64,000 nucleotides of DNA from Acidaminococcaceae bacterium (GTDB taxonomy: Bacteria; Bacillota; Negativicutes; Acidaminococcales; Acidaminococcaceae). The position numbers were made by a program, and so were the translations under genes. Shown here piece by piece: positions 4,172 through 23,009 of the stretch. The stretch lies in assembly GCA_944390935.1 (NCBI GenBank), contig CALXRU010000004.1, forward strand, positions 1 through 64,000, given 5' to 3'. The number at the start of each line of letters is the position of its first letter. Positions within the stretch are counted from its first letter, which is position 1. The notes beneath the pieces were generated by a model that saw nothing but the letters and a program-made list of their open reading frames with translations, had not been told where the DNA came from and ran no database searches.

Positions 4172-5410
4172 GTGAAAGTAAAAAATAAACTTATCGCAAT
4201 GGGCGTACTTTGCGCCCTGTCCGTGCCGCAGCTTGCCGGTGCGGAAGGCTTTGCCATTAACGAGTGGAGTGCTGAAGGCGTTGCCATGGGCGGCGCGCGC
4301 ATGTTTGCCGAAGGCGACGCTGCCAACGTGGCGTACAATCCGGCTTCCATTACCAAGGTAGACGGCGAGGCTTTTAAAGCAAGCGTAACCTACATTAGTC
4401 CGCACGGCGATTACGATTTGTACAAAAATGATGGAACACATGAAAGCGGCCATAACCGCGTGCATTTTGGTTTTGCACCCGGTACTTATTATGTAAAAAA
4501 GATTAACGATAAAGACTGGTTCGGTATTGGTGCCTTCAGCCGCTTTGCCATGGTTTCTGAATTTGAACGTAATTCTGCCGTTTCCACTAATGCTTTTGTA
4601 TCGCGTTTGGATGGCGTGAGCGTTACGCCGACCTTTGCACATAAATTTGACGATAAATGGAGCGCAGCTGTAGGTGCGGAAATTAACTATGTGCGTTTGA
4701 CTATGGAGAAAAATACCGCATATAATCCTTTGACTGGTCTTGGTGTTGGTCCTACCCATACAAAAGGCGAAAGTTATGCTTTGGGCTGGAATGCTGCCGC
4801 CAACTATGCTTTTGATGATAAGAACGAAATCGGTGTAGTATACCGCAGCCGCATTAAACATTCCATGGAAGCAGATTTTAAAGGCTATGGAATTCCGAAC
4901 GGCATAGGTGATGTTTCCGGTGATGCTTACGGTGAAGTAACGCTGCCGGAATCCTGGCATATTGGTTACAGCCATAAGTTTAATGATAAAACCCGTGTGG
5001 AATTAAATGCCGTACGTACCGGTTGGGATACTTATGATGCTTTAAACATTAATACACCAATTGCATACATTGAAAATCCTAAAAACTGGGAGGACGGCTG
5101 GCGTTATGCCATCGGTATTGAACATAAGCTGAGCGATAAATATACCGTTATGGCAGGCTATGCTTATGACGAATCTTCCATTCCTTATGAAGGCGGCGAC
5201 TTTATGGTGCCGACCGGCAACCGCCGTACCTATTCCATCGGCGCGCGCTACAATGATAAAGACCAGACCGTAGCTTTGGCACTGGGCTGGATGGATGTAG
5301 GCGATTTGCAGTTTAAATTTAAAGGAACTGGTCCTGCTGATGGCGGCCGTGCCCACACTCACGACAGCTTTACCAAAATTATCGGTATCAGCTACCAGCG
5401 CAATTTTTAA
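4172..5410 (+). CDS. OmpP1/FadL/TodX-type outer-membrane channel
   Basis: Predicted outer-membrane beta-barrel for uptake of hydrophobic compounds. The 412-residue precursor has a Sec signal peptide (residues 1-24, ending AGA before EGF), then the family's N-terminal hatch region (FAINEWSAEGVAMGGARMF then DAANVAYNPAS), then alternating aromatic strands and a terminal Phe (SYQRNF), the usual outer-membrane assembly signal. It starts at a GTG; AGGGGTGA lies shortly before it. The substrate cannot be told from sequence. It is a single-gene unit and good evidence that this Firmicute-like organism has an outer membrane. Confidence 0.88.
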   Translation: MKVKNKLIAMGVLCALSVPQLAGAEGFAINEWSAEGVAMGGARMFAEGDAANVAYNPASITKVDGEAFKASVTYISPHGDYDLYKNDGTHESGHNRVHFGFAPGTYYVKKINDKDWFGIGAFSRFAMVSEFERNSAVSTNAFVSRLDGVSVTPTFAHKFDDKWSAAVGAEINYVRLTMEKNTAYNPLTGLGVGPTHTKGESYALGWNAAANYAFDDKNEIGVVYRSRIKHSMEADFKGYGIPNGIGDVSGDAYGEVTLPESWHIGYSHKFNDKTRVELNAVRTGWDTYDALNINTPIAYIENPKNWEDGWRYAIGIEHKLSDKYTVMAGYAYDESSIPYEGGDFMVPTGNRRTYSIGARYNDKDQTVALALGWMDVGDLQFKFKGTGPADGGRAHTHDSFTKIIGISYQRNF

Positions 5411-12585: not shown

Positions 12586-13003
12586 AAATTTAGGCAAAAA
12601 AGGCGATATTGTTGAAACTGCGGAAGGCTACGGCCGCAACTACCTGCTGCCGCGCAAAATGGCTAAGGAAGCCAACGCCGCTAACCTGAACGAAGCCAAA
12701 CAGAACAAGGCTACCGAAGCACACCGCGCAGCACAGCGCAAGGACGAAGCAGTTATGCTGGCAGCACAGCTGAAAAAAGTGCACGTTATTGTTAAAGTGC
12801 GCGTGGGCGACAACGGCAAGATGTTTGGCAGCGTAACCAGCAAGGACGTTGCCGAAGCCTTGATTGAGCAGACCAAGCTTGACATCGACCGCCGCAAGGT
12901 TGAACTTAAATCCGCCGTTAAAGGCGTGGGCGAATACACCGCGGTTGCCAAACTGCACCCAGAAATTTCCGCAGAATTTGCCGTAACCGTTGCTGCGGAA
13001 TAA
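12557..13003 (+). CDS. rplI: 50S ribosomal protein L9
   Basis: Binds 23S rRNA. The 148-residue product starts with the conserved MKVILLQDVKNLGKKGDIV then the rRNA-binding GYGRNYLLPR; a long central helix leads to the C-terminal domain (VTSKDVAEAL then LKSAVKGVGEYTAVAKLHPEI). The ATG at 12557 is preferred over 12548 because MKVILLQ is the family start; GAGGAG lies ten bases before it. Second last gene of the DUF2232-gdpP-rplI-dnaB operon. Confidence 0.96.
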   Translation: MKVILLQDVKNLGKKGDIVETAEGYGRNYLLPRKMAKEANAANLNEAKQNKATEAHRAAQRKDEAVMLAAQLKKVHVIVKVRVGDNGKMFGSVTSKDVAEALIEQTKLDIDRRKVELKSAVKGVGEYTAVAKLHPEISAEFAVTVAAE

Positions 13004-13013
13004 GGCGAGCGCC

Positions 13014-14369
13014 ATGATTGACAGAGTACCACCGCAAAACATAGAAGCAGAACAGGCCGTGCTGGGTGCAATGCTTTTGGAGCGCGAGGCGATTGCCAAG
13101 GTAATGGAAAAGCTGCGTTCCGAAGATTTTTACCGCGAGGCGCACAAGGTAATTTTTAACGCCATGCTGGAGCTTTACAACCGCAACGAAGCCGTCGATC
13201 TGGTAACGGTGACGGAGGTTTTGAAGAAAAACGGCAAGCTGGAGGACGTGGGCGGCATTGCTTACGTTACATCGCTGGCTAATGCCGTGCCGACGGCTGC
13301 CAACGTGGTGTACCATGCGGGCATCGTCGAAGAAAAATCGATTCTGCGCCAGCTGGTGCGCAGCGCTACCGAGATAGCAGAGCTGGGCTACGAAGGCAGC
13401 GAGGACGTCAGCGACATTATTGATTCTGCCGAAAAGAAAATACTGGATATTTCCAACCGCAAAAAGGACACCGACTTTGTGCCGATTAACAACATCGTCA
13501 TGGATTCCTTTAAGGACCTGGAAGCCCTGATGAACAACAAAAACGGGCTTACGGGTTTGCCGACCGGTTTTGTGGATTTTGATAACTTGACCAGCGGCCT
13601 GCATGGCAGCGATTTTATCATTCTGGCGGCGCGCCCTTCCATGGGTAAAACGGCGCTTTCGCTGAACATTGTGCAGAACGTGGCTATCCGCAGCGGCAGG
13701 CAGACGGACGGCAAGCCGAAAGTTGTTGCCTTTTTCAGCTTGGAAATGAGCAAGGAACAGCTGGTGCAGCGTATGCTCTGCGCCGAAGCCAATATAGATT
13801 CGCAGCGCCTGCGTATCGGCGAACTGCGCGACGAGGACTGGATGCAGCTGATACAAACGGCTGACGCACTCAGCGCGGCGCAGATTTATATCGACGACAC
13901 AGCAGGCATAACGGCGATGGAAATGCGCAGCCGTGCGCGCCGGTTGAAGGCGGAACACGGGCTGGATTTAATCGTCGTCGATTACCTGCAATTGATGCAG
14001 GGCAGCGGCAAACGCAATTTAAGCGGCGACCGCCAGCAGGAGGTTTCCGAAATTTCCCGCTCGCTTAAAGCGCTGGCGCGTGAGCTGAACGTGCCGATAA
14101 TTGCACTGTCGCAGTTAAGCCGCAGCGTGGAATCGCGTCAGGTAAAACGCCCGATGCTTTCCGACCTGCGCGAATCCGGCTCACTGGAGCAGGACGCCGA
14201 TATCGTAATGTTCCTGTACCGCGAAGATTACTACAACCCCGAAACCGAAAACAAAAACATCACCGAGCTTATCGTCGCCAAGCACCGCAACGGTCCGGTA
14301 GGCACCATCAACCTGTTCTTCCACAAACAATTCACCAAGTTTGTAAGTTTAACGAAAATGGATAAATAA
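13014..14369 (+). CDS. dnaB: Replicative DNA helicase
   Basis: Hexameric helicase that unwinds DNA at the replication fork. The 451 residues hold the DnaB N-terminal domain (about 10-110), a linker and the RecA-like C-terminal domain: Walker A ARPSMGKTALS (about 208-218), FSLEMSKEQL with the catalytic Glu, VVDYLQLM (Walker B, about 321), the sensor glutamine in ALSQLSR and the arginine-finger segment AKHRNG (about 421). The ATG at 13014 gives the usual MIDRVPPQNIEAE start, ten bases after rplI. A degenerate paralog of its C-terminal domain lies 2.3 kb downstream. Confidence 0.97.
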   Translation: MIDRVPPQNIEAEQAVLGAMLLEREAIAKVMEKLRSEDFYREAHKVIFNAMLELYNRNEAVDLVTVTEVLKKNGKLEDVGGIAYVTSLANAVPTAANVVYHAGIVEEKSILRQLVRSATEIAELGYEGSEDVSDIIDSAEKKILDISNRKKDTDFVPINNIVMDSFKDLEALMNNKNGLTGLPTGFVDFDNLTSGLHGSDFIILAARPSMGKTALSLNIVQNVAIRSGRQTDGKPKVVAFFSLEMSKEQLVQRMLCAEANIDSQRLRIGELRDEDWMQLIQTADALSAAQIYIDDTAGITAMEMRSRARRLKAEHGLDLIVVDYLQLMQGSGKRNLSGDRQQEVSEISRSLKALARELNVPIIALSQLSRSVESRQVKRPMLSDLRESGSLEQDADIVMFLYREDYYNPETENKNITELIVAKHRNGPVGTINLFFHKQFTKFVSLTKMDK

Positions 14370-14370
14370 G

Positions 14371-14406
14371 AAAACGCTGTACGCATTTGTGTACAGCGTT
14401 TTTTAT
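14371..14406 (+). terminator. Intrinsic terminator of dnaB
   Basis: Twelve-base-pair perfect stem AAAACGCTGTAC / GTACAGCGTTTT, then more T. It ends the housekeeping operon before the A+T-rich island. Confidence 0.9.
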
Positions 14407-14485
14407 ATCTTGCTTTAGAAAAATGAAAGAAGAAAAAGAAGATAGAAAAAATTAAAGAAGATAGACGTATAATGTCCATTATCTC

Positions 14486-14494
14486 TGTTATAAT
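14486..14494 (+). promoter_or_regulatory. Extended -10 of the WYL island
   Basis: TGT-TATAAT, 21 bases before the GTG start at 14516; no clear -35. Confidence 0.5.
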
Positions 14495-14515
14495 AAAATC
14501 AAAGAGGTGATAAAC

Positions 14516-15484
14516 GTGGATAATATCAATAAAAACAGAAAACTTTCGATATATTCCAGATTGATAAGAGGCTGCTATATCGATAAAGAAGAGGAAGCAG
14601 AAAATTATGGCGTTTCGCTGCGTACTATCCAACGGGATTTAGAGGATATCAGAGATTTTATGGCTGAAGAAAATAGTGGTAACAAAATTATATATGATAA
14701 AAAGCTTGATATGTACAGAGCTTCATATTCTGAAGATGCAATAGTAACAACAACGGCAATTGCGTTGATAAAAATATTACTGGGCTGCAAGGCATTTACA
14801 AAAAACGAATTAAAAAGAATAATAGAAGAATTGTGCCCTGGTTATTATGACTGGAATTCGGAAGCAACAAAAGAAAAAAATGATTATGTTAAAAAGCTTA
14901 TACAAAATGAACTGTTTAACTATGTAAGCCCTGTACATGGCAAAACAATTTTAAAAACTATCAGTGAAATTAATGATGCCATTATAAATCAAAAGATTTT
15001 AAAAATACATTACCGCCGTATGGAGGGCAACATTGTAACCCGCGAAATTAAGCCGGTTGGGCTGCTGTTTTCCGAATATTATTTTTATATGCCGGCGTAT
15101 TTTACGGAAAAAGATGCTGAAGATGATTATGCAGACGGCACATTAGTGCCGGTTATTTACAGAGTTGACCGTATTGAGGAGATAATGGATACAGGCAGGC
15201 ATTATAAAATAAATTACGCCACGCGCTTTCAGGAAGGAGAGTTCCGCAAACGCATTCAGTTTATGCAGACAGGTACGCTGGTAAAAATAAAATTTTACTA
15301 TAATGGGCCGTCGCTTGAAGCGGTTTTAGACAGAGTGCCTACTGCCAAAATTTTGGAACACAACCAGAGAGGCTGGCTTATTGAAGCGGAAATGTACAAC
15401 AAAGGCATTGAAATGTGGCTGCGAAGCCAAGGCGGGATGGTTGAACTTTTAGAGGAAAAAGAAATTAAAAACAGAACATATTAA
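14516..15484 (+). CDS. WYL-domain transcriptional regulator
   Basis: A 322-residue DNA-binding regulator of the HTH-WYL-WCX type. Residues 10-50 form a DeoR-like winged helix (IDKEEEAENYGVSLRTIQRD). The middle (about 150-220) is the WYL domain (ILKIHYRRMEGNIVTREIKPVGLLFSEYYFYM), where YFYM replaces the tryptophan motif; the C-terminal part (about 235-320) fits WCX (KIKFYY then GWLIEAEM). Such proteins sense nucleic acids or nucleotides and often control defence genes. The GTG at 14516 follows AGAGGTGA. The first and last thirds are A+T-rich compared with dnaB. Two genes follow in the same direction, 29 and then 13 bases apart. Confidence 0.82.
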   Translation: MDNINKNRKLSIYSRLIRGCYIDKEEEAENYGVSLRTIQRDLEDIRDFMAEENSGNKIIYDKKLDMYRASYSEDAIVTTTAIALIKILLGCKAFTKNELKRIIEELCPGYYDWNSEATKEKNDYVKKLIQNELFNYVSPVHGKTILKTISEINDAIINQKILKIHYRRMEGNIVTREIKPVGLLFSEYYFYMPAYFTEKDAEDDYADGTLVPVIYRVDRIEEIMDTGRHYKINYATRFQEGEFRKRIQFMQTGTLVKIKFYYNGPSLEAVLDRVPTAKILEHNQRGWLIEAEMYNKGIEMWLRSQGGMVELLEEKEIKNRTY

Positions 15485-15513
15485 ATTATAAAGCAAAAAA
15501 GGAGTGCTGTATT

Positions 15514-16656
15514 ATGTATGAGAACTTTGCCAAAAACGAACTGAAAAACAATTTATTTGAATATGCAACCAGTGAACTTTCGCAGGACGCATTTATCTGC
15601 TGGCTTGCTTCTTATGCGCATGAAGAAGCGGAGAAAGATGAAGCGCTTAACGAATGTGCCAAAAAGATGCTGGAAATGTTTGTAAAGGAATTTGAAGGCA
15701 AAAACTTTAAGCTATTAAATGTTGAGCGTCAGGTTGATAATGTTGATGTTTTGTTGACAGTTGATTGTGAGGGTATAATCTACAAAATTATTGTGGAAGA
15801 TAAGACATATACTTCTGAACATGATAACCAGTTAAAAAAATATAAAGTAGATTTAGAAGATAAATATAAAGATAAAGATAAAGATAAAGGTATTAAAGTT
15901 AAGGGCGTTTATTATAAAACTGGGTTTCAAAGTGATTTAAGCAGTGTTGACGAAGCTGAATACCAACCAATCGGCAGAGAAGAAATGTTGAAATTAATGC
16001 AGCCCTATGCCAAAAAAACTAATAATCAGATATTTATCAGTTATTATAATTATTGGAATAGTAAACAAAAATTAGTTGAAACTTTTAAAACACTGCCGGT
16101 TGTTGACTGGAGCTGGTGGGCTGTTTATGGATTTTATGATTATTTGAAAGAAAAATTAGAAAAAAGTGATATGGTTTGTTGGTATGGTGATGTTTCTAAT
16201 CCAGCGGGAGGATTTGAATGTTTGGCTATTTGGTTGAATAATGATCAAGACAAAATAATTGTAAAAGATACTGCAAAAGAAGTACCGTGTAGTGTTTATT
16301 TTCATTTAGAGTTTCATAGAATTTATAATGCTGAAAGAAATATATGGGAAAGAAGATTGCAAAGTTCTTTAAAGTTACAAATTTGTGCAGGAAAAGAATA
16401 TAAAAACTATGGCAAAAAAGAAATAGTAAACGATGGTATTAATATACAAAATGTTAGAGAAAAAGTATTAGAAAAATTATATTCTAATAAAAATTTAAAT
16501 AAACATTATTTTGAAAAACCAAAAAGAAATGGTAACGGCCGACATATTACTGTGGGAGTCATTGAAGATTTCGCAGAAGATGCTGAAAGTTTAGAAAAAA
16601 AGACCTATGAAATTGTTAAAGACTATAAAGAAATTTTAGAAAAACTAAAAAATTAA
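15514..16656 (+). CDS. PD-(D/E)XK nuclease superfamily protein
   Basis: A 380-residue protein that fits the PDDEXK_4 group: the N-terminal signature SELSQDAFICWL (residues 20-31), then the nuclease core with Asp78 in DNVDVLL and E95-D96-K97 in IIVEDKTYTSEHDNQLKKY. The catalytic pattern D-x(16)-E-x-K is intact. After an Asp/Lys-rich repeat (about 112-128) a larger C-terminal region (WSWWAVYGFYDYLKEKLE and following) carries no motif I recognise. No signal peptide. AAGGAG lies upstream. Strongly A+T-rich, unlike dnaB. Substrate unknown; DNA cleavage is inferred from fold only. It is the middle gene of the WYL / nuclease / pseudo-DnaB set. Confidence 0.75.
   Translation: MYENFAKNELKNNLFEYATSELSQDAFICWLASYAHEEAEKDEALNECAKKMLEMFVKEFEGKNFKLLNVERQVDNVDVLLTVDCEGIIYKIIVEDKTYTSEHDNQLKKYKVDLEDKYKDKDKDKGIKVKGVYYKTGFQSDLSSVDEAEYQPIGREEMLKLMQPYAKKTNNQIFISYYNYWNSKQKLVETFKTLPVVDWSWWAVYGFYDYLKEKLEKSDMVCWYGDVSNPAGGFECLAIWLNNDQDKIIVKDTAKEVPCSVYFHLEFHRIYNAERNIWERRLQSSLKLQICAGKEYKNYGKKEIVNDGINIQNVREKVLEKLYSNKNLNKHYFEKPKRNGNGRHITVGVIEDFAEDAESLEKKTYEIVKDYKEILEKLKN
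15866..15889 (+). repeat. Four tandem ATAAAG hexamers in the nuclease gene
   Basis: Four perfect hexamer copies encode alternating Lys-Asp inside the coding frame. Gain or loss of a copy changes length by two residues and keeps the frame, so it alters the protein without switching it off. Confidence 0.8.
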
Positions 16657-16669
16657 ACTGGTGATATAA

Positions 16670-17551
16670 ATGGCAGATTTAAATTTTAACAACTTTACTT
16701 CAGCATCGGATATCGCCTACAAAGCTTTTCAGGAAATTGAGGGCTATGTTAATGAGCTGGCTACTTGTCCCAAAATACCAACAGGATTAAAAGAATTTGA
16801 CAGAGCAATTATGGGCGGTATTTACGATACCGATTTAATGGTTTTGGCGGCACGGCCTAGTATGGGTATAACAACACTTGCCCTTAATTTTTTGAATAAC
16901 ATTGCTTGCAACGGAAATGCTTCTGTGGCATATTTTTCATTTGATTTAAGTAAAGAAGTTTTAATTAAAAGATTACTTTGGTTGATGGCAGAAATTAAAA
17001 GAAAAAATGTATCAGAAGGCTGGCTGACGGATAAAGATTGGCAAAGAATGGTTAACGCCGTTGAAACAGTACAAAAAAGTAAAATCTTTTTTGACGATAC
17101 TCCGCTTATAAGTGTTGAGGATTTTTTACAGCGTATAAAACAGGCCAAAGAATCTTTAAATGTAGATTTGATAATCGTAGATTCTTTTAATTTTATTCCC
17201 AATAATTTAAAAAACATTCAAGAGTGTTCTAAACTGGCTGATAAAATTAAAGAGCTGATTTTGGAATTACATGTACCTGTTATTTTGCTTTTGCAATTAA
17301 AGTATACTAGTGATTATAGACACTTCAATTATCCGGATATAAGAGAATTGCGAAAGTTTGGTTCACTGAATAAACATGCTGATATAGTTACTTTTTTGAA
17401 CAGGTTTTCCTATTATGATCCGGATGAGCAGTATGCTTATATGTGCGAGTTAATTATAGCAAGACAAAGGCGTGGAATAGCAAGAGTAATAAATTTATTT
17501 TATGATTTGACTACCGGAAAAATTAAATCATTAGCCCGTTGTTCGGAATAA
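16670..17551 (+). CDS. DnaB C-terminal-domain paralog with a dead Walker A motif
   Basis: A 293-residue protein collinear with the linker and RecA-like domain of DnaB but lacking the N-terminal domain. The P-loop reads ARPSMGITTLAL, so the essential lysine is Ile67 (codon ATA where AAA would encode Lys). The catalytic glutamate segment reads YFSFDLSKEVL, with Asp92 for Glu. Kept are Walker B Asp171 (IIVDSFNF), the sensor glutamine (LLLQLKY) and the arginine-finger segment ARQRRG (264-269). ATP hydrolysis is therefore unlikely, while subunit contacts may persist. It lies 13 bases after the nuclease gene, so the two are probably co-translated; GGTGAT is a weak ribosome site. Base composition is A+T-rich. 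An adaptor or poison for DnaB-type rings is inference. Confidence 0.85.
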   Translation: MADLNFNNFTSASDIAYKAFQEIEGYVNELATCPKIPTGLKEFDRAIMGGIYDTDLMVLAARPSMGITTLALNFLNNIACNGNASVAYFSFDLSKEVLIKRLLWLMAEIKRKNVSEGWLTDKDWQRMVNAVETVQKSKIFFDDTPLISVEDFLQRIKQAKESLNVDLIIVDSFNFIPNNLKNIQECSKLADKIKELILELHVPVILLLQLKYTSDYRHFNYPDIRELRKFGSLNKHADIVTFLNRFSYYDPDEQYAYMCELIIARQRRGIARVINLFYDLTTGKIKSLARCSE

Positions 17552-17594
17552 GCAAAACCGTCAGAAACATTTGCTTCTGACGGTTTTGCTGTTT
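17551..17594. terminator. Terminator closing the island
   Basis: Perfect 16-base-pair stem (AGCAAAACCGTCAGAA / TTCTGACGGTTTTGCT) with an eight-base loop, between the pseudo-DnaB gene and the convergent ppx. It can serve both, although the T tracts are within the stem. Confidence 0.8.
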
Positions 17595-17600
17595 CTATCT

Positions 17601-19130
17601 TCACTTTTCTTCCACCAAACTTATATTCAGCGGTACGCCGAAGGTTTTGGAGAACCATTTTAAGTGTGTGCGGATTTGGTGCATTTCGATGGCGGGGATG
17701 CCGTCGGCGTGCAGCAAAAGGTTGGCGCCGGTTTTATTAACTGTTGCGCTTTTAATTTGCAGCAGGCTGCTTTGCGTATAATCCAGGCTTTCGGCCAGCG
17801 CCAGTATCAGCGCCAGCTTATTGACCGTGTCCCAGTTTTTGGGGGTCAGCATGCTGGTAAAAAGCTGGTCGCGGAAGAAGTAGCTTTTGGATACGCCGTT
17901 GTGCCAGCCCGCGATGGCGCTGGTTACAAGCTGTTCTTTATGCGTAAGCCCGAACAGTTTGGCGTTTTGTATCATGTAAGCGCCGTGGCGCGCGTGGCTG
18001 TAAAAGTTAATGATAATGCCGATGTCGTGCAGCAGCGCCGCTGTTTTTAAAAGGCGGCGGCAGCTTTTGCCAAGCCCGTGCAGCTGTTTCCAGCTGTCAA
18101 ACATTTGCAGTGCCAGTTCCGTAACGTGCTTGCTGTGCGTAACATCCGGCGTGTACAGGTTCAAAATGTTTTCGGTGCTGCGCGCCAAAATATCGTCGGC
18201 AATCAGCGGTATATTGCGCTCCTTGCTGTAATAGTCAAAAAACAGCCCTTCGCGCAGGCCGCAGCCCGATGTAATAAGCTGCTTGCTGCCGGTGACTTCA
18301 AACAGGGCGTTGATAATGGCGGCGCCTGCGAAGATAATATCGGCGCGGTCGCTGCTTAAGCCGGAGATTTTTTTGCGTTCTTCCAGCGTGCTGCCTTTAA
18401 GGCGGTTGAAGATGCCGCGGAAGGCCTGCACCGTCAGTTTATAGTTATGGATTTTGGTGGTGGGGTATCTGGTGGCGCGCTGGTGCATTTTGCCAATGGT
18501 GCGCGCCGTGCCGCCGACGCCTATCAGCGGAAGCTTGGGCTGTTTTAGCCACGGATATTCCGAAAGGCGCGTGCGCAGGAAAAAGGTCAGGTCGCTGTAA
18601 GCTGTGGGGCTGATATCGTTGCGGGTGTTGAACATGGCGGTGGTGTTTACCGCGCCGATGGGCACGGAAACGGATTCCAGTATTTTGCGTTCGTGAAAGT
18701 AAATAAGTTCCGTGCTGCCGCCGCCAAGGTCAAAGATGATGCCGCTTTCATACGGCAGGGTGTTGATTACGCCGAGGTAGCTGATATAGGCTTCGGTGTT
18801 GCCGGTGATGATGTGCAGGCTTATGCCTGTTTCCTGCTCAACAAGCTTTGTAAGTTCCGCGCCGTTTTTGGCGTTGCGTATGGCGGCCGTTGCCACGGCG
18901 ATGGTTCGGTCGGCGTGGTACAGCTTGCACATATGGGCAAAGCTTTTCATTGTTTCAATGGTGTCGGTAAAGGCCTGCGGCGTCAGGCATCCTTTTTTGT
19001 CGGTCTTCTGGCTTAAGCGCAGGGCTTCCTTCTGGTTGTAAACCATGTTGTAGGCGCCGTTTTTGTAAATATGCGTTATTACAAGGCGCGCCGAGTTGGA
19101 GCCGATATCTATAATCGCAATCCTCTGCAA
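17601..19130 (-). CDS. ppx: Exopolyphosphatase, Ppx/GppA family
   Basis: Hydrolyses the ends of inorganic polyphosphate (or pppGpp). The 509 residues hold an ASKHA phosphatase domain with phosphate-1 loop IIDIGSNSARLVI (about 5-17), ATAAIRNAKNG, and phosphate-2 loop FDLGGGSTELIY (about 139-150), followed by an HD domain (AALLHDIG, about 367-374, then SHARHGAYMI). The start is a TTG; GGGAGGG lies about eight bases upstream, and an ATG just before it is out of frame. It is divergent from a Ppx-like gene and ppk, forming a polyphosphate locus. Confidence 0.9.
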   Translation of the reverse strand: MQRIAIIDIGSNSARLVITHIYKNGAYNMVYNQKEALRLSQKTDKKGCLTPQAFTDTIETMKSFAHMCKLYHADRTIAVATAAIRNAKNGAELTKLVEQETGISLHIITGNTEAYISYLGVINTLPYESGIIFDLGGGSTELIYFHERKILESVSVPIGAVNTTAMFNTRNDISPTAYSDLTFFLRTRLSEYPWLKQPKLPLIGVGGTARTIGKMHQRATRYPTTKIHNYKLTVQAFRGIFNRLKGSTLEERKKISGLSSDRADIIFAGAAIINALFEVTGSKQLITSGCGLREGLFFDYYSKERNIPLIADDILARSTENILNLYTPDVTHSKHVTELALQMFDSWKQLHGLGKSCRRLLKTAALLHDIGIIINFYSHARHGAYMIQNAKLFGLTHKEQLVTSAIAGWHNGVSKSYFFRDQLFTSMLTPKNWDTVNKLALILALAESLDYTQSSLLQIKSATVNKTGANLLLHADGIPAIEMHQIRTHLKWFSKTFGVPLNISLVEEK

Positions 19131-19337: not shown

Positions 19338-20891
19338 GTGAGAAAAAAACAATATAAAATTTTTGCGGCCATTCATCTCGGCTCTGAGATGATAAGCATG
19401 CAGATTGTGCAGTACCGCAATTTGAACAACATTAAAATCCTTGAAGAATGTAACCGCCGCGTGCGTCTGGGCGAGGAAACCTTTAAAAATAAAATTATCC
19501 CGTTCAGCATGGTTAACGAAATCTGCGAGCTTCTTGTCGGCTTTAAACGCCTGATGACGGAGTACGAGGTTGAGGAATACAGCATGCAGGCGACTACCGC
19601 CGTGCGCGAGGCGCTGAACCGCGTATTTTTGATTGACCAGATTTATATCCGCACGGGGCTTAAAGTTACCGTTATTGATTTACCGGAGGAAATTTACACC
19701 AAGTATCAGTCCATCCGCCGCACGATGAAGCTGGATGGCCTCACAGGCGTGGATGAGAGCATGCTGATGATGGATATTTCGTCCGGCGGGCTTGGTATTA
19801 CCTTTGTGAAGGACAACGTCATCCGCTACCAGCAGAATTTGAACATCGGCGTTATCCGTGTGAAGGAAAGCTTTAACCGCAACCAGCGCAGCTCGATGAA
19901 GTTTAACCAGGCTTTGGCGGAATACCTTTCCAGCACGATGGGCGCGGTAAGGGACGCACTGAAAAATGAGCAGGTGCGTTACCTTGTGCTTTCCGGTGCG
20001 GAATCGGAGCTGCTTTTGCAGATGCTGGGCATTGAGTTTAAGGCGGGCGTTATCCGCATTAAGACGGAGCAGTTTATGCAGCTGTTTAAAACGGTGCATG
20101 CGCTGAACCTGCCGCAGATTATCAAAGTGTTTAAAATTAACGAGGACATTGCCGAACTTGTTGTGCCGACCATTTTGTTGTACGAGCAGCTTCTGGCTCT
20201 GGTGCAGGTACAGGAAATTATCCTGACGGACGACCGCTTTATCGACGGCATCTGCCTGCTGCATATCGGGCCGAAAACCAACAGGGATTATGCCGCAGAG
20301 CTGGAGCAGGAGCAGCTTAGTTTGTTCCACAGCATCGGCAGGCGTTACCATTATGACGAGGCACATTCCCGTCAGGTTGAAAAGCTGGCGGTGGCGATGT
20401 TTGATAAACTTGGCAAGCACCACGGGCTGGACAGCCACAGCCGCATCTTACTTCAGGCAACGGCGCTGCTGCACGATATCGGCAAGTACGTATCGCTGCG
20501 CAGCCATTCGCTGTACAGCTACAAGCTGCTGATGTCGAGCGATATGCTTGGTTTCAGCGAGCTGGATAAAAAGATTGTGGCGCTGGCCAGCTATTACCAT
20601 GCGCACAGGCTGTTCAGCGGCAGTATCCACGCCGACGTGGAGGAAATGTCGCCGGAGATTATGCCGCTGGTAGCAAAACTTGCCGCGCTGGTGCGTTTGG
20701 CGGACGCAATGGACCGCAGCTATAAACAGAAAATTAAAAGCTGCCGCGTAAATGTTAAAAACGGCGTGATGAAGGTGGAAGCCGTTACGCGCGAGGATTT
20801 AACGATTGAGGAATGGACGTTTGCTTCCAAGGCATCGTTCTTTGAAGAAGTTTACGGATTACAGGCAGTTTTGGAACGGGTGGAAAGATAA
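19338..20891 (+). CDS. Degenerate Ppx/GppA-like protein with C-terminal HD domain
   Basis: A 517-residue protein with the same two-part layout as the divergent ppx. The first phosphate loop reads AAIHLGSEMISMQIV, where His replaces the loop Asp, and the second reads MDISSGGLGITF in place of DLGGGSTE, so exopolyphosphatase activity is doubtful. The HD domain looks intact (ALLHDIGKYVSL, about 375-386, then YYHAHRLF and RLADAMDRS). It starts at GTG 19338 after GAGGTG; the ATG two bases upstream runs straight into TGA. Its stop codon is directly followed by the ppk ATG, so the two are translationally coupled. A regulator of ppk or a phosphohydrolase is inference. Confidence 0.82.
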   Translation: MRKKQYKIFAAIHLGSEMISMQIVQYRNLNNIKILEECNRRVRLGEETFKNKIIPFSMVNEICELLVGFKRLMTEYEVEEYSMQATTAVREALNRVFLIDQIYIRTGLKVTVIDLPEEIYTKYQSIRRTMKLDGLTGVDESMLMMDISSGGLGITFVKDNVIRYQQNLNIGVIRVKESFNRNQRSSMKFNQALAEYLSSTMGAVRDALKNEQVRYLVLSGAESELLLQMLGIEFKAGVIRIKTEQFMQLFKTVHALNLPQIIKVFKINEDIAELVVPTILLYEQLLALVQVQEIILTDDRFIDGICLLHIGPKTNRDYAAELEQEQLSLFHSIGRRYHYDEAHSRQVEKLAVAMFDKLGKHHGLDSHSRILLQATALLHDIGKYVSLRSHSLYSYKLLMSSDMLGFSELDKKIVALASYYHAHRLFSGSIHADVEEMSPEIMPLVAKLAALVRLADAMDRSYKQKIKSCRVNVKNGVMKVEAVTREDLTIEEWTFASKASFFEEVYGLQAVLERVER

Positions 20892-23009
20892 ATGGAAAAG
20901 AAAGAAAAAATTAATCTTAACAAACCGGAATACTTTTTTAACCGCGAACTGAGCTGGTTAAAATTTAACCTGCGTGTGCTGCGCGAAGCCGGCGTTAAAA
21001 CCACGCCGCTCCTGGAACGCTTAAAATTTGTGGCGATTACCGCCTCGAACCTTGACGAGTTTTTTATGGTGCGCGTTGCCGGGTTGTGGGACCAGTTTGA
21101 AAACGGCATCAACAAGCGCGACGCCGCCGGGCTGACGGTTAAGCAGCAGCTGGCGGAAATCAGTAAATCCGCGCACGACCAGATGCGCCTTTTAAACAAA
21201 TATCTGCTTTCGCTGATTAAGGAACTGCGCGCCGCAGGCATTTATATCTGCCGCGTCAGCGATTTGAGCGAGGGCGGGCGTCGCTGGCTGGAAGGCTATT
21301 ATCAGGAAGAAATCTTCCCGGTATTGACGCCGATGGCGGTTGATGCTTCGCGCCCCTTCCCGTTTCTGGCAAACAAAACCTTAAACCTTGCCGTTGAACT
21401 GACCAATCAGGAGGGCGAGGACAGCATGGGCATCGTGCAGGTGCCTTCCGTACTGCCGCGCCTGATTGAAGTGCCGGGCGAGAGCAAGCGCACCTTTGTA
21501 TTTTTGGAGGACGTTATCAACGAGCACTGCGGCGATTTGTACAGCGGCTGCAAGATTCTGGATATTGTGCCGTTCCGCATTACGCGCGACAGTGACCTGG
21601 AAGTTGACGAGGACGACATCGACAACCTGCTGAAGGAAGTGGAAAAATCCCTGCGTGCACGTACACGCGGAGCTTCTGTAAGGCTTGAGATTTATAACAA
21701 GGCCAACAGCCGTATCCGTAAGTTCCTGTACGATAATCTGGATATTACCGAGCAGGAAGTTTACGAAATCAACGGGCCGCTTGACGCAACCTGCTTCTTT
21801 AAATTTGCTTCGCTGCCCGGCATGTGGCCGTGGCTGTATGAGCCATTTGTGCCGCAGCGCCCGCTGGAGCTGCCCGACGACAGCGATATTTTTGCAGTTC
21901 TGCGTGAGCGCGACGTGCTTTTGCACCACCCATTTGAAAGCTTTGACGCCGTTGTTAAATTTGTCAGCGACGCTGCTGATGACCCCAACGTGCTGGCAAT
22001 CAAGCAGACTTTGTACCGCGTCAGTGGCAACTCGCCGATAGTAGCGGCACTGGCACGCGCTGCCGAAAACGGCAAGCAGGTTACGGTACTGGTGGAATTA
22101 AAAGCACGCTTTGACGAAGAAAACAACATCCTGTGGGCACGCCGCCTTGAACAAGCTGGCTGCCACGTAATTTACGGTTTGATGGGGCTCAAGACCCACG
22201 CCAAAATTATCCTTGTTGTGCGCAAGGAAGCCGACGGCATTAAACGCTATGTACATCTCGGCACGGGCAACTACAACGATAACACCGCCAAGCTGTACAC
22301 CGATATGGGCTTAATGACGGCTAACGACCAGTTCGGCAGCGACGCATCGGCGTTCTTCAACGTGCTGTCCGGCTATTCCGACCCGCCGGTATGGAACAAG
22401 CTGGTTATGGCTCCGCTCGGACTGCGCAAAAAGATTTACGAGCTGATTGACAACGAAATCGCCATCGTGAAAAACGGCGGCACGGGCCACATCATCGCCA
22501 AGATGAACTCCCTGATTGACTATCCTGTTATCCAGAAGCTGTACGAGGCTTCGATGGCAGGCGTTAAGATAGACCTGATTATCCGCGGTATCTGCGGTTT
22601 GCGCGCGGGTATGGAAGGCATCAGCGACAATATTACCGTGCGCAGCATCGTCGGCAGGCAGCTGGAACACAGCCGCATTTTCTGGTTCCAGGGCGGCGGC
22701 AAGGAGCAGTTGTTCCTTTCCAGTGCGGACTGGATGCCGCGTAACCTTAACGACCGCGTTGAGCTGTTCTTCCCGGTAGAAACACCGGCGCATATTGAGC
22801 GCATTAAAAAGGTGCTTGATTTGTACCTGCGCGACAACGTCGGCGCGCATATGATGCAAAGTAACGGCACCTACCGCCGCGTAACCAACAGACTGGAGCC
22901 CGTCGGTGCGCAAAGCACGCTGTACGAATGGGCACTGCTTGCCGCAACGGCGGATAAAATACCGATGCAGGACCGCCTGCGCCCGATGTACAACCGCGAC
23001 AAGGCATAA
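20892..23009 (+). CDS. ppk: Polyphosphate kinase 1
   Basis: Reversibly makes polyphosphate from ATP. The 705 residues match Ppk1: N-terminal domain FFNRELSWLKFN then ASNLDEFFMVR, head domain, and two PLD-like catalytic domains with the phosphorylated histidine in LKTHAKI (about residue 435) and the second histidine in EHSRIFWF (about 592). IKQTLYRVSG and HLGTGNYND are also present. Zero bases separate it from the preceding Ppx-HD gene. Confidence 0.97.
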   Translation: MEKKEKINLNKPEYFFNRELSWLKFNLRVLREAGVKTTPLLERLKFVAITASNLDEFFMVRVAGLWDQFENGINKRDAAGLTVKQQLAEISKSAHDQMRLLNKYLLSLIKELRAAGIYICRVSDLSEGGRRWLEGYYQEEIFPVLTPMAVDASRPFPFLANKTLNLAVELTNQEGEDSMGIVQVPSVLPRLIEVPGESKRTFVFLEDVINEHCGDLYSGCKILDIVPFRITRDSDLEVDEDDIDNLLKEVEKSLRARTRGASVRLEIYNKANSRIRKFLYDNLDITEQEVYEINGPLDATCFFKFASLPGMWPWLYEPFVPQRPLELPDDSDIFAVLRERDVLLHHPFESFDAVVKFVSDAADDPNVLAIKQTLYRVSGNSPIVAALARAAENGKQVTVLVELKARFDEENNILWARRLEQAGCHVIYGLMGLKTHAKIILVVRKEADGIKRYVHLGTGNYNDNTAKLYTDMGLMTANDQFGSDASAFFNVLSGYSDPPVWNKLVMAPLGLRKKIYELIDNEIAIVKNGGTGHIIAKMNSLIDYPVIQKLYEASMAGVKIDLIIRGICGLRAGMEGISDNITVRSIVGRQLEHSRIFWFQGGGKEQLFLSSADWMPRNLNDRVELFFPVETPAHIERIKKVLDLYLRDNVGAHMMQSNGTYRRVTNRLEPVGAQSTLYEWALLAATADKIPMQDRLRPMYNRDKA

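What the first reader, a model, noticed from the sequence alone, without database searches (positions are those of the whole stretch)
14407..17594. Three-gene A+T-rich island: WYL regulator, PD-(D/E)XK nuclease-like protein and pseudo-DnaB, set between dnaB and ppx
The sequence shows three closely spaced co-directional genes between two terminators, clearly more A+T-rich than both neighbours. WYL regulators and PD-(D/E)XK nucleases are common in phage-defence loci (family knowledge). The third gene is a truncated, probably ATP-dead DnaB C-domain. A nuclease paired with a helicase mimic suggests a system that watches or blocks replication helicases, for example sensing a phage DnaB-type helicase or attacking stalled forks. 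I know of no described system with this composition; that is a statement of memory, not a search.
Basis: partly seen in the sequence, partly recalled or inferred. Interest (0 to 1): 0.82.

Follow-up and report, generated by a model that had tools for sequence, protein, structure and literature searches.

The report
Nuclease island with a dead DnaB
Between two housekeeping genes this bacterium carries a small acquired gene cassette, probably an anti-virus defence, that pairs a DNA-cutting enzyme with a disabled copy of the motor end of the replication helicase DnaB, which may act as bait for viruses that hijack that helicase.

Summary
Three intact co-directional genes (WYL regulator, PD-(D/E)XK nuclease, DnaB C-domain protein "psB") lie between two terminators in the most A+T-rich stretch of the window. 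The slot is empty in two same-genus genomes and holds other cargo in two more, so this is an accessory island, not decay. psB keeps the DnaB linker helix and C-domain fold (Z 34.7) but has lost the Walker A lysine (K>I) and catalytic glutamate (E>D). The three genes are not a widespread fixed module. The nuclease belongs to a scattered family (246 genome loci, no hit in the viral or phage collections; PADLOC candidate PDC-S26) and none of 85 loci has a DnaB C-domain gene nearby. WYL is its commonest neighbour family, and close relatives of this WYL head cassettes resembling Eleos (Leo), Bunzi and HEC-07. In the 59 family genomes only two carry an interior DnaB-C-only gene; both lie beside a PDC-S26-type nuclease and a WYL gene. 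The second locus also has a PolC fragment without its catalytic aspartates; such dead PolC genes lie near similar WYL genes in four genomes. Best reading: a WYL-controlled defence cassette in which psB is a replisome mimic. Function is untested.

The parts
14371..14402 (+). terminator hairpin after dnaB; left border of the island. The same terminator sequence follows dnaB in G002, while the two empty-slot genomes have a different one
14469..14482 (+). candidate WYL operator: palindrome ATAATG-TC-CATTAT overlapping a TATAAT-like -10; weak, may be chance in A+T-rich DNA, not shared with other WYL loci
   Evidence: sequence, palindrome scan
14516..15484 (+). WYL-domain transcriptional regulator (322 aa, HTH + WYL), first gene of the cassette
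   Evidence: Pfam WYL 5.4e-11, PADLOC WYL 8e-16; relatives 38-46% identical head defence-type cassettes
15514..16656 (+). PD-(D/E)XK nuclease (380 aa) of the PADLOC PDC-S26 / PDDEXK_4 type; predicted active site D78, E95-D96-K97, Q106, Y110 plus N-terminal motif NxFxxATSELSQDA
   Evidence: model pLDDT 84.8; weak fold matches to EndoMS, Can2/Card1, MspJI, FokI, Z 5-7
16670..17551 (+). psB: DnaB linker helix + C-terminal domain only (293 aa), Walker A K>I (I67), catalytic E>D (D92), segment after Walker B diverged; arginine finger R267, Walker B D171 and Q209 kept
   Evidence: DnaB_C 4e-56; alignments; model pLDDT 84.1, Z 34.7 to Thermus DnaB
17551..17590 (+). terminator hairpin after psB; right border of the island, facing the convergent ppx gene

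Best explanation
The island is an acquired WYL-controlled defence cassette in the dnaB-ppx slot. Shown: three intact, closely spaced co-directional genes; the slot is empty in sister genomes; the nuclease active-site motif is intact; psB has the DnaB linker helix and C-domain fold without the catalytic lysine. Inferred: the WYL protein represses the operon until a phage-related signal arrives; the nuclease is the effector that cuts DNA; psB is a replisome mimic. Because psB keeps the linker-helix/C-domain surface to which helicase loaders (DciA, DnaC, phage lambda P) bind on DnaB, the most likely role is bait: a phage protein that seizes the host DnaB binds psB instead, which releases or directs the nuclease, or simply soaks up the hijacker.
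For: Empty slot (about 52-60 bp between dnaB and ppx) in G003 and G004, other cargo in G002 and G005. Window-type WYL relatives head cassettes whose next genes match PADLOC LeoA/LeoBC, BnzB, HEC-07 and PDC-M40B; WYL regulators co-localise with defence systems (PMC9122601). Nuclease: 246 relatives across phyla, none found in viral contigs or phages; WYL is the commonest family among 119 neighbours (7 by Pfam; one of them, L087, is a second neighbour that I added by hand), in some loci directly upstream. psB: lysine and glutamate lost within an otherwise conserved Walker A segment; fold kept. Loaders bind the LH-DH module of DnaB (PMC9912922); the host has the DciA loader. Recurrence: interior DnaB-C-only genes in 2 of 59 family genomes, both within 1.2 kb of a PDC-S26-type nuclease; nucleases of the two subfamilies were found in only 3 of the 59. 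PolC fragments lacking the catalytic PDIDLNF motif and about 130 residues lie near L031-type WYL genes in G035, G030, G039 and G040.
Against: No ortholog of psB was found, so selection on it cannot be measured. None of 85 nuclease loci carries psB, so the nuclease works without it elsewhere. The G035 nuclease is not alignable to this one by BLAST, its genes are not one operon, and its DnaB-C keeps the Walker A lysine. The G035, G030 and G039 cases share one genus, so they are not independent. No binding, DNase or phage experiment exists. PDC-S26 is itself only a candidate family.
Confidence: 0.42

Rival explanations
1. WYL + nuclease is the whole functional unit; psB is an unrelated passenger, or an accessory with a role outside defence, that happens to sit in the same transcription unit.
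For: Nuclease relatives stand alone or behind WYL in all 85 loci searched, never with DnaB-C; psB is unique in 398 phylum genomes.
Against: 13-bp gap, shared base composition, no terminator found between them on the + strand; the other interior DnaB-C-only gene of the family also lies next to a PDC-S26-type nuclease and a WYL gene.
Confidence: 0.27
2. psB is a poison subunit: made during infection, it mixes through its linker helix into DnaB-type hexamers (host or phage) and stalls them; the nuclease then cuts the stalled forks.
For: psB keeps the linker helix and the trans-acting arginine finger R267 but lacks the catalytic lysine, as expected for a mixed-ring blocker; model matches DnaB.
Against: Only about 34% identity to the host DnaB; linker and following segments are only 35-42% like the DnaB consensus; no complex could be modelled here.
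Confidence: 0.2
3. psB is the restraint or immunity partner of the nuclease (toxin-antitoxin-like), with the DnaB fold used only as a scaffold.
For: Adjacent genes, 13 bp apart.
Against: The nuclease family manages without psB elsewhere; no TA pair with a DnaB-fold antitoxin is known to me.
Confidence: 0.06
4. Remnant of a mobile element or prophage whose DnaB is decaying.
For: A+T-rich, accessory, variable slot.
Against: No integrase, phage gene or tRNA nearby; ORFs intact although psB is very diverged (P of no stop 1.5e-11); lysine lost while the rest of Walker A is kept.
Confidence: 0.05

Closest known systems
PADLOC candidate PDC-S26 (PDDEXK_4 type nuclease, candidate stand-alone defence gene)
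   Same: the nuclease matches four PDC-S26 models (best 1e-9); scattered distribution, some defence-type neighbours
   Different: only part of the profile is matched (about 70-120 residues); here it sits between a WYL gene and a DnaB mimic
BrxR-type WYL regulators of defence islands (PMC9122601)
   Same: first gene of a cassette of defence-type genes; HTH + WYL layout
   Different: sequence relation to BrxR not tested; operator, repression and ligand untested here
Replicative helicase DnaB
   Same: psB has the linker helix + C-domain fold, Z 34.7
   Different: no N-domain, K216I, E241D, segment after Walker B diverged; about 34% identity to the host DnaB
DnaB-C-only gene plus dead PolC fragment of G035 (L031)
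   Same: same bacterial family, beside a WYL gene and a PDC-S26-type nuclease
   Different: DnaB-C keeps its catalytic residues; nuclease from another subfamily; different gene order
Eleos (LeoA/LeoBC) and Bunzi (BnzB) type cassettes headed by close WYL relatives
   Same: same WYL family as first gene
   Different: different cargo (dynamin-like GTPases and others)

Membership tests
PADLOC PDC-S26 nuclease | match to the family profiles | tested here: met
   4 models, best 9.9e-10, over residues about 26-171; partial coverage
PD-(D/E)XK nuclease superfamily | conserved D and (D/E)XK residues | tested here: met
   D78, E95-D96-K97, Q106, Y110 invariant in a 32-row alignment
PD-(D/E)XK nuclease superfamily | restriction-endonuclease-like core fold | tested here: inconclusive
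   model residues about 10-180 match EndoMS, Can2, Card1, MspJI, FokI only at Z 5-7; PDDEXK_4 0.0019, below cut-off
DnaB replicative helicase | N-terminal domain + linker + RecA-like C-domain | tested here: not met
   no N-domain; 212 bits against a TIGR00665 cut-off of 385
DnaB replicative helicase | Walker A lysine and catalytic glutamate | tested here: not met
   K>I at 67, E>D at 92
DnaB C-terminal domain fold | RecA-like DnaB_C fold | tested here: met
   PF03796 4e-56; Z 34.7, rmsd 1.7 over 247 residues
WYL-domain regulator of defence islands | WYL domain with N-terminal HTH | tested here: met
   WYL 5.4e-11 over its cut-off; HTH_11 0.011, weak
WYL-domain regulator of defence islands | represses its operon through inverted repeats | not tested
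   only a weak palindrome at 14469-14482
anti-phage defence system | protects against phage | not testable with these tools
   needs plating assays

The most novel reading that the evidence does not exclude
This bacterial family repeatedly builds defence cassettes around dead mimics of its own replisome (an ATPase-dead DnaB C-domain here, catalytically dead PolC fragments near WYL genes in four other genomes), used as bait for phage proteins that seize the host helicase or polymerase, with a nuclease as the effector.
Probability: 0.25. Interest if true: 0.87.

Novelty: new variant of a known kind. Interest (0 to 1): 0.6.

Why it matters
Phage takeover of the replicative helicase is an old theme, but I know of no bacterial defence that uses a disabled DnaB or PolC as bait or poison. 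If true, dead copies of replisome proteins next to WYL genes and nucleases would be a recognisable signature for finding such systems, and psB would be a ready-made probe for phage helicase hijackers. Even without that, the work ties a candidate nuclease family (PDC-S26) to neighbouring WYL genes in several lineages.

Tried and rejected
(1) psB as a local copy of the neighbouring dnaB: the tree puts psB on a very long branch (6 changes per site) with no supported place; neither shown nor excluded. (2) psB relatives: none at E<=1e-56 in 398 phylum genomes; no viral contigs relative; no viral hit for the Walker A K>I pattern; phage and plasmid hits listed are about 30-37% identical, and the annotated ones opened are full-length helicases. 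A Clostridia-centred search was not possible. (3) Counting DnaB-C-only genes over the class: the output was cut before low-scoring rows, so the 2-of-59 count is for the family only. (4) A shared operator among WYL relatives: none seen. (5) Foldseek on the nuclease: no match at E<=0.001; matches of its C-terminal half (Mediator, capping protein, Z about 7) are at the level the tool calls common. (6) Island borders: no flanking repeat clearly marking a transposition or att site. (8) PADLOC PDC-S26 hit of psB (0.0044) taken as chance.

Full report
WHAT IS THERE. The island runs from 14516 to 17551 on the + strand between dnaB (12990-14369) and a convergent ppx gene (17601-19130, - strand). It holds three intact ORFs spaced 29 and 13 bp apart. 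GC is 0.30-0.36 against 0.50-0.54 for the neighbours, and the lowest-GC 3-kb stretch of the window starts at 14401. Terminator hairpins close both ends (14371-14402 and 17551-17590). Third-position GC is 0.23-0.35 in the three genes and 0.66-0.68 in dnaB, ppx and ppk, which fits horizontal origin.

AN OCCUPIED SLOT. In two genomes of the same genus (G003, G004; dnaB 100% and ppx 94-99% identical to the window's in protein) dnaB and ppx are separated only by a short shared terminator region. In G005 the slot holds an autotransporter-like gene, in G002 an autotransporter-like gene with an IS200-type transposase ORF (both by eye from the translations), and in G001 dnaB has other genes downstream. 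The slot is variable, and the island is absent rather than decayed in its relatives.

THE WYL GENE. Pfam WYL 5.4e-11 and PADLOC WYL 8e-16. Relatives with 38-46% identity head short cassettes whose following genes match PADLOC candidates: LeoA/LeoBC (dynamin type) in G005 and Lachnospira eligens, BnzB in G001 and L. eligens, HEC-07 in G040 and G065, PDC-M40B in G035. Some relatives stand beside other genes, for example a serpin in G002 and, by eye, tryptophan-synthesis-like genes in G010 and G023, so the association is strong but not universal. WYL regulators are known to control defence islands (BrxR, PMC9122601).

THE NUCLEASE. Pfam PDDEXK_4 is weak (0.0019, below cut-off), but PADLOC PDC-S26 matches at 1e-9. 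The family alignment has invariant D78, E95-D96-K97, Q106, Y110 and an N-terminal NxFxxATSELSQDA motif. One scan of 84,980 species genomes found 246 relatives in many phyla. Searches of viral contigs and phage records found none, and plasmids gave four. In the family it occurs in G000 and G011 only. In 85 loci with up to 8 kb on each side no DnaB C-domain gene was found. WYL was the commonest family among 119 neighbours (7 members by Pfam, one of which I had added by hand from second position), sometimes overlapping the nuclease start by about 4 bp (L035 by the match coordinates; L049). DrmC, RmrA and HEC-type matches are among the other neighbours. The AlphaFold model (pLDDT 84.8) matches PD-(D/E)XK enzymes only weakly (Z 5-7), so the assignment rests mainly on the motif and the family match.

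psB. DnaB_C 4e-56. It aligns to Geobacillus DnaB from residue 159 to 439: linker helix plus C-domain. K216 is I67, E241 is D92, K418 is R265; D320 (D171), Q362 (Q209) and R420 (R267) are kept; the roles of these residues are from family knowledge. Of 91 nearly invariant DnaB columns psB keeps 50. The Walker A segment keeps 86% of the consensus although its lysine is gone, while the segment after Walker B keeps 8%. A pointed loss of catalysis with retention of the fold is the simplest reading. The model (pLDDT 84.1) fits Thermus DnaB at Z 34.7, rmsd 1.7 over 247 residues. Its place in a tree of DnaB C-domains is unresolved. The ORF has no stop in 293 codons despite great divergence (chance 1.5e-11 at its base composition), so it is probably a maintained protein; without orthologs this is inference.

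RECURRENCE. In 59 genomes of the family an interior DnaB-C-only gene occurs in two: this one and G035 (other short frames lie at contig ends). The G035 locus (L031) also has a WYL gene 125 bp away, a PDDEXK_4 / PDC-S26 nuclease 1.1 kb away, an AAA ATPase and a 376-aa PolC-derived protein. Nucleases of the two subfamilies occur in 3 of the 59 genomes, so co-location in both DnaB-C-only genomes is unlikely to be chance, though two cases are few, the two nucleases are not alignable by BLAST and the G035 gene order differs. The PolC-derived protein has relatives of 355 aa in G030 and G039, a piece at a contig end in G040, and one in G455 of another family. Aligned to canonical PolC they lose the PDIDLNF catalytic motif and about 130 following residues but keep the flanks. 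In G035, G030, G039 and G040 they lie within about 3 kb of an L031-type WYL gene, which is itself rare (6 of 61 genomes). G035, G030 and G039 belong to one genus, so independent cases are perhaps two or three. In 398 phylum genomes only G455 gave a further dead PolC gene at high score.

HOW IT MAY WORK. Shown: gene order, intact nuclease motif, lost catalytic residues and kept fold of psB, accessory status. From the literature: helicase loaders, among them DciA, DnaC and phage lambda P, bind the linker-helix/determinant-helix module of DnaB (PMC9912922); the host has DciA. Inferred: psB offers this module without activity, so a phage loader or inhibitor aimed at DnaB would meet psB, and this would trigger or guide the nuclease or simply titrate the phage protein. 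A poison-subunit model fits almost as well; a passenger model remains open because nuclease relatives do without psB.

VERDICT. Observation confirmed; the defence reading is well supported by association; the replication-helicase link is a good but untested hypothesis; the three genes are not a conserved module. New variant of a known kind (WYL-headed nuclease cassette) with an unusual third component.

Noticed in passing
L031 4737-5867 (G035); L187 5432-6499 (G030); L188 165-1232 (G039); L190 166-606 (G040, at contig end); L189 4841-5905 (G455): Stand-alone PolC-derived proteins lacking the catalytic PDIDLNF motif and about 130 following residues (L190 is only a piece); in four of five genomes near a WYL gene.
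   Followed up: partly
L031 5870-6772: A second DnaB-C-only gene, with intact Walker A, 2 bp from the PolC-fragment gene on the same strand and divergent from a WYL gene.
   Followed up: partly
L187 5023-5311: Remnant of an L031-type WYL gene (only residues 1-28 and 281-342) beside the PolC-fragment gene in G030, with an intact WYL gene about 3.7 kb away.
   Followed up: no
L024 1919-3466 and 4382-4879; L023 2235-4406: The same dnaB-ppx slot holds autotransporter-like genes in G002 and G005, with an IS200-type transposase ORF in G002: a small insertion hotspot.
   Followed up: partly
L139 1921-3072: A serpin gene (Pfam 1.6e-37) directly after a WYL relative in G002.
   Followed up: no
window 17601-19130, 19338-20891, 20892-23009: Two diverged ppx-like genes on opposite strands followed by a ppk-like gene.
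   Followed up: no
window 14371-14402; L022 about 4530-4600; L025 about 4850-4920: The dnaB terminator differs between filled slots (G000, G002) and empty slots (G003, G004), so gain or loss of the island replaced the terminator too.
   Followed up: no
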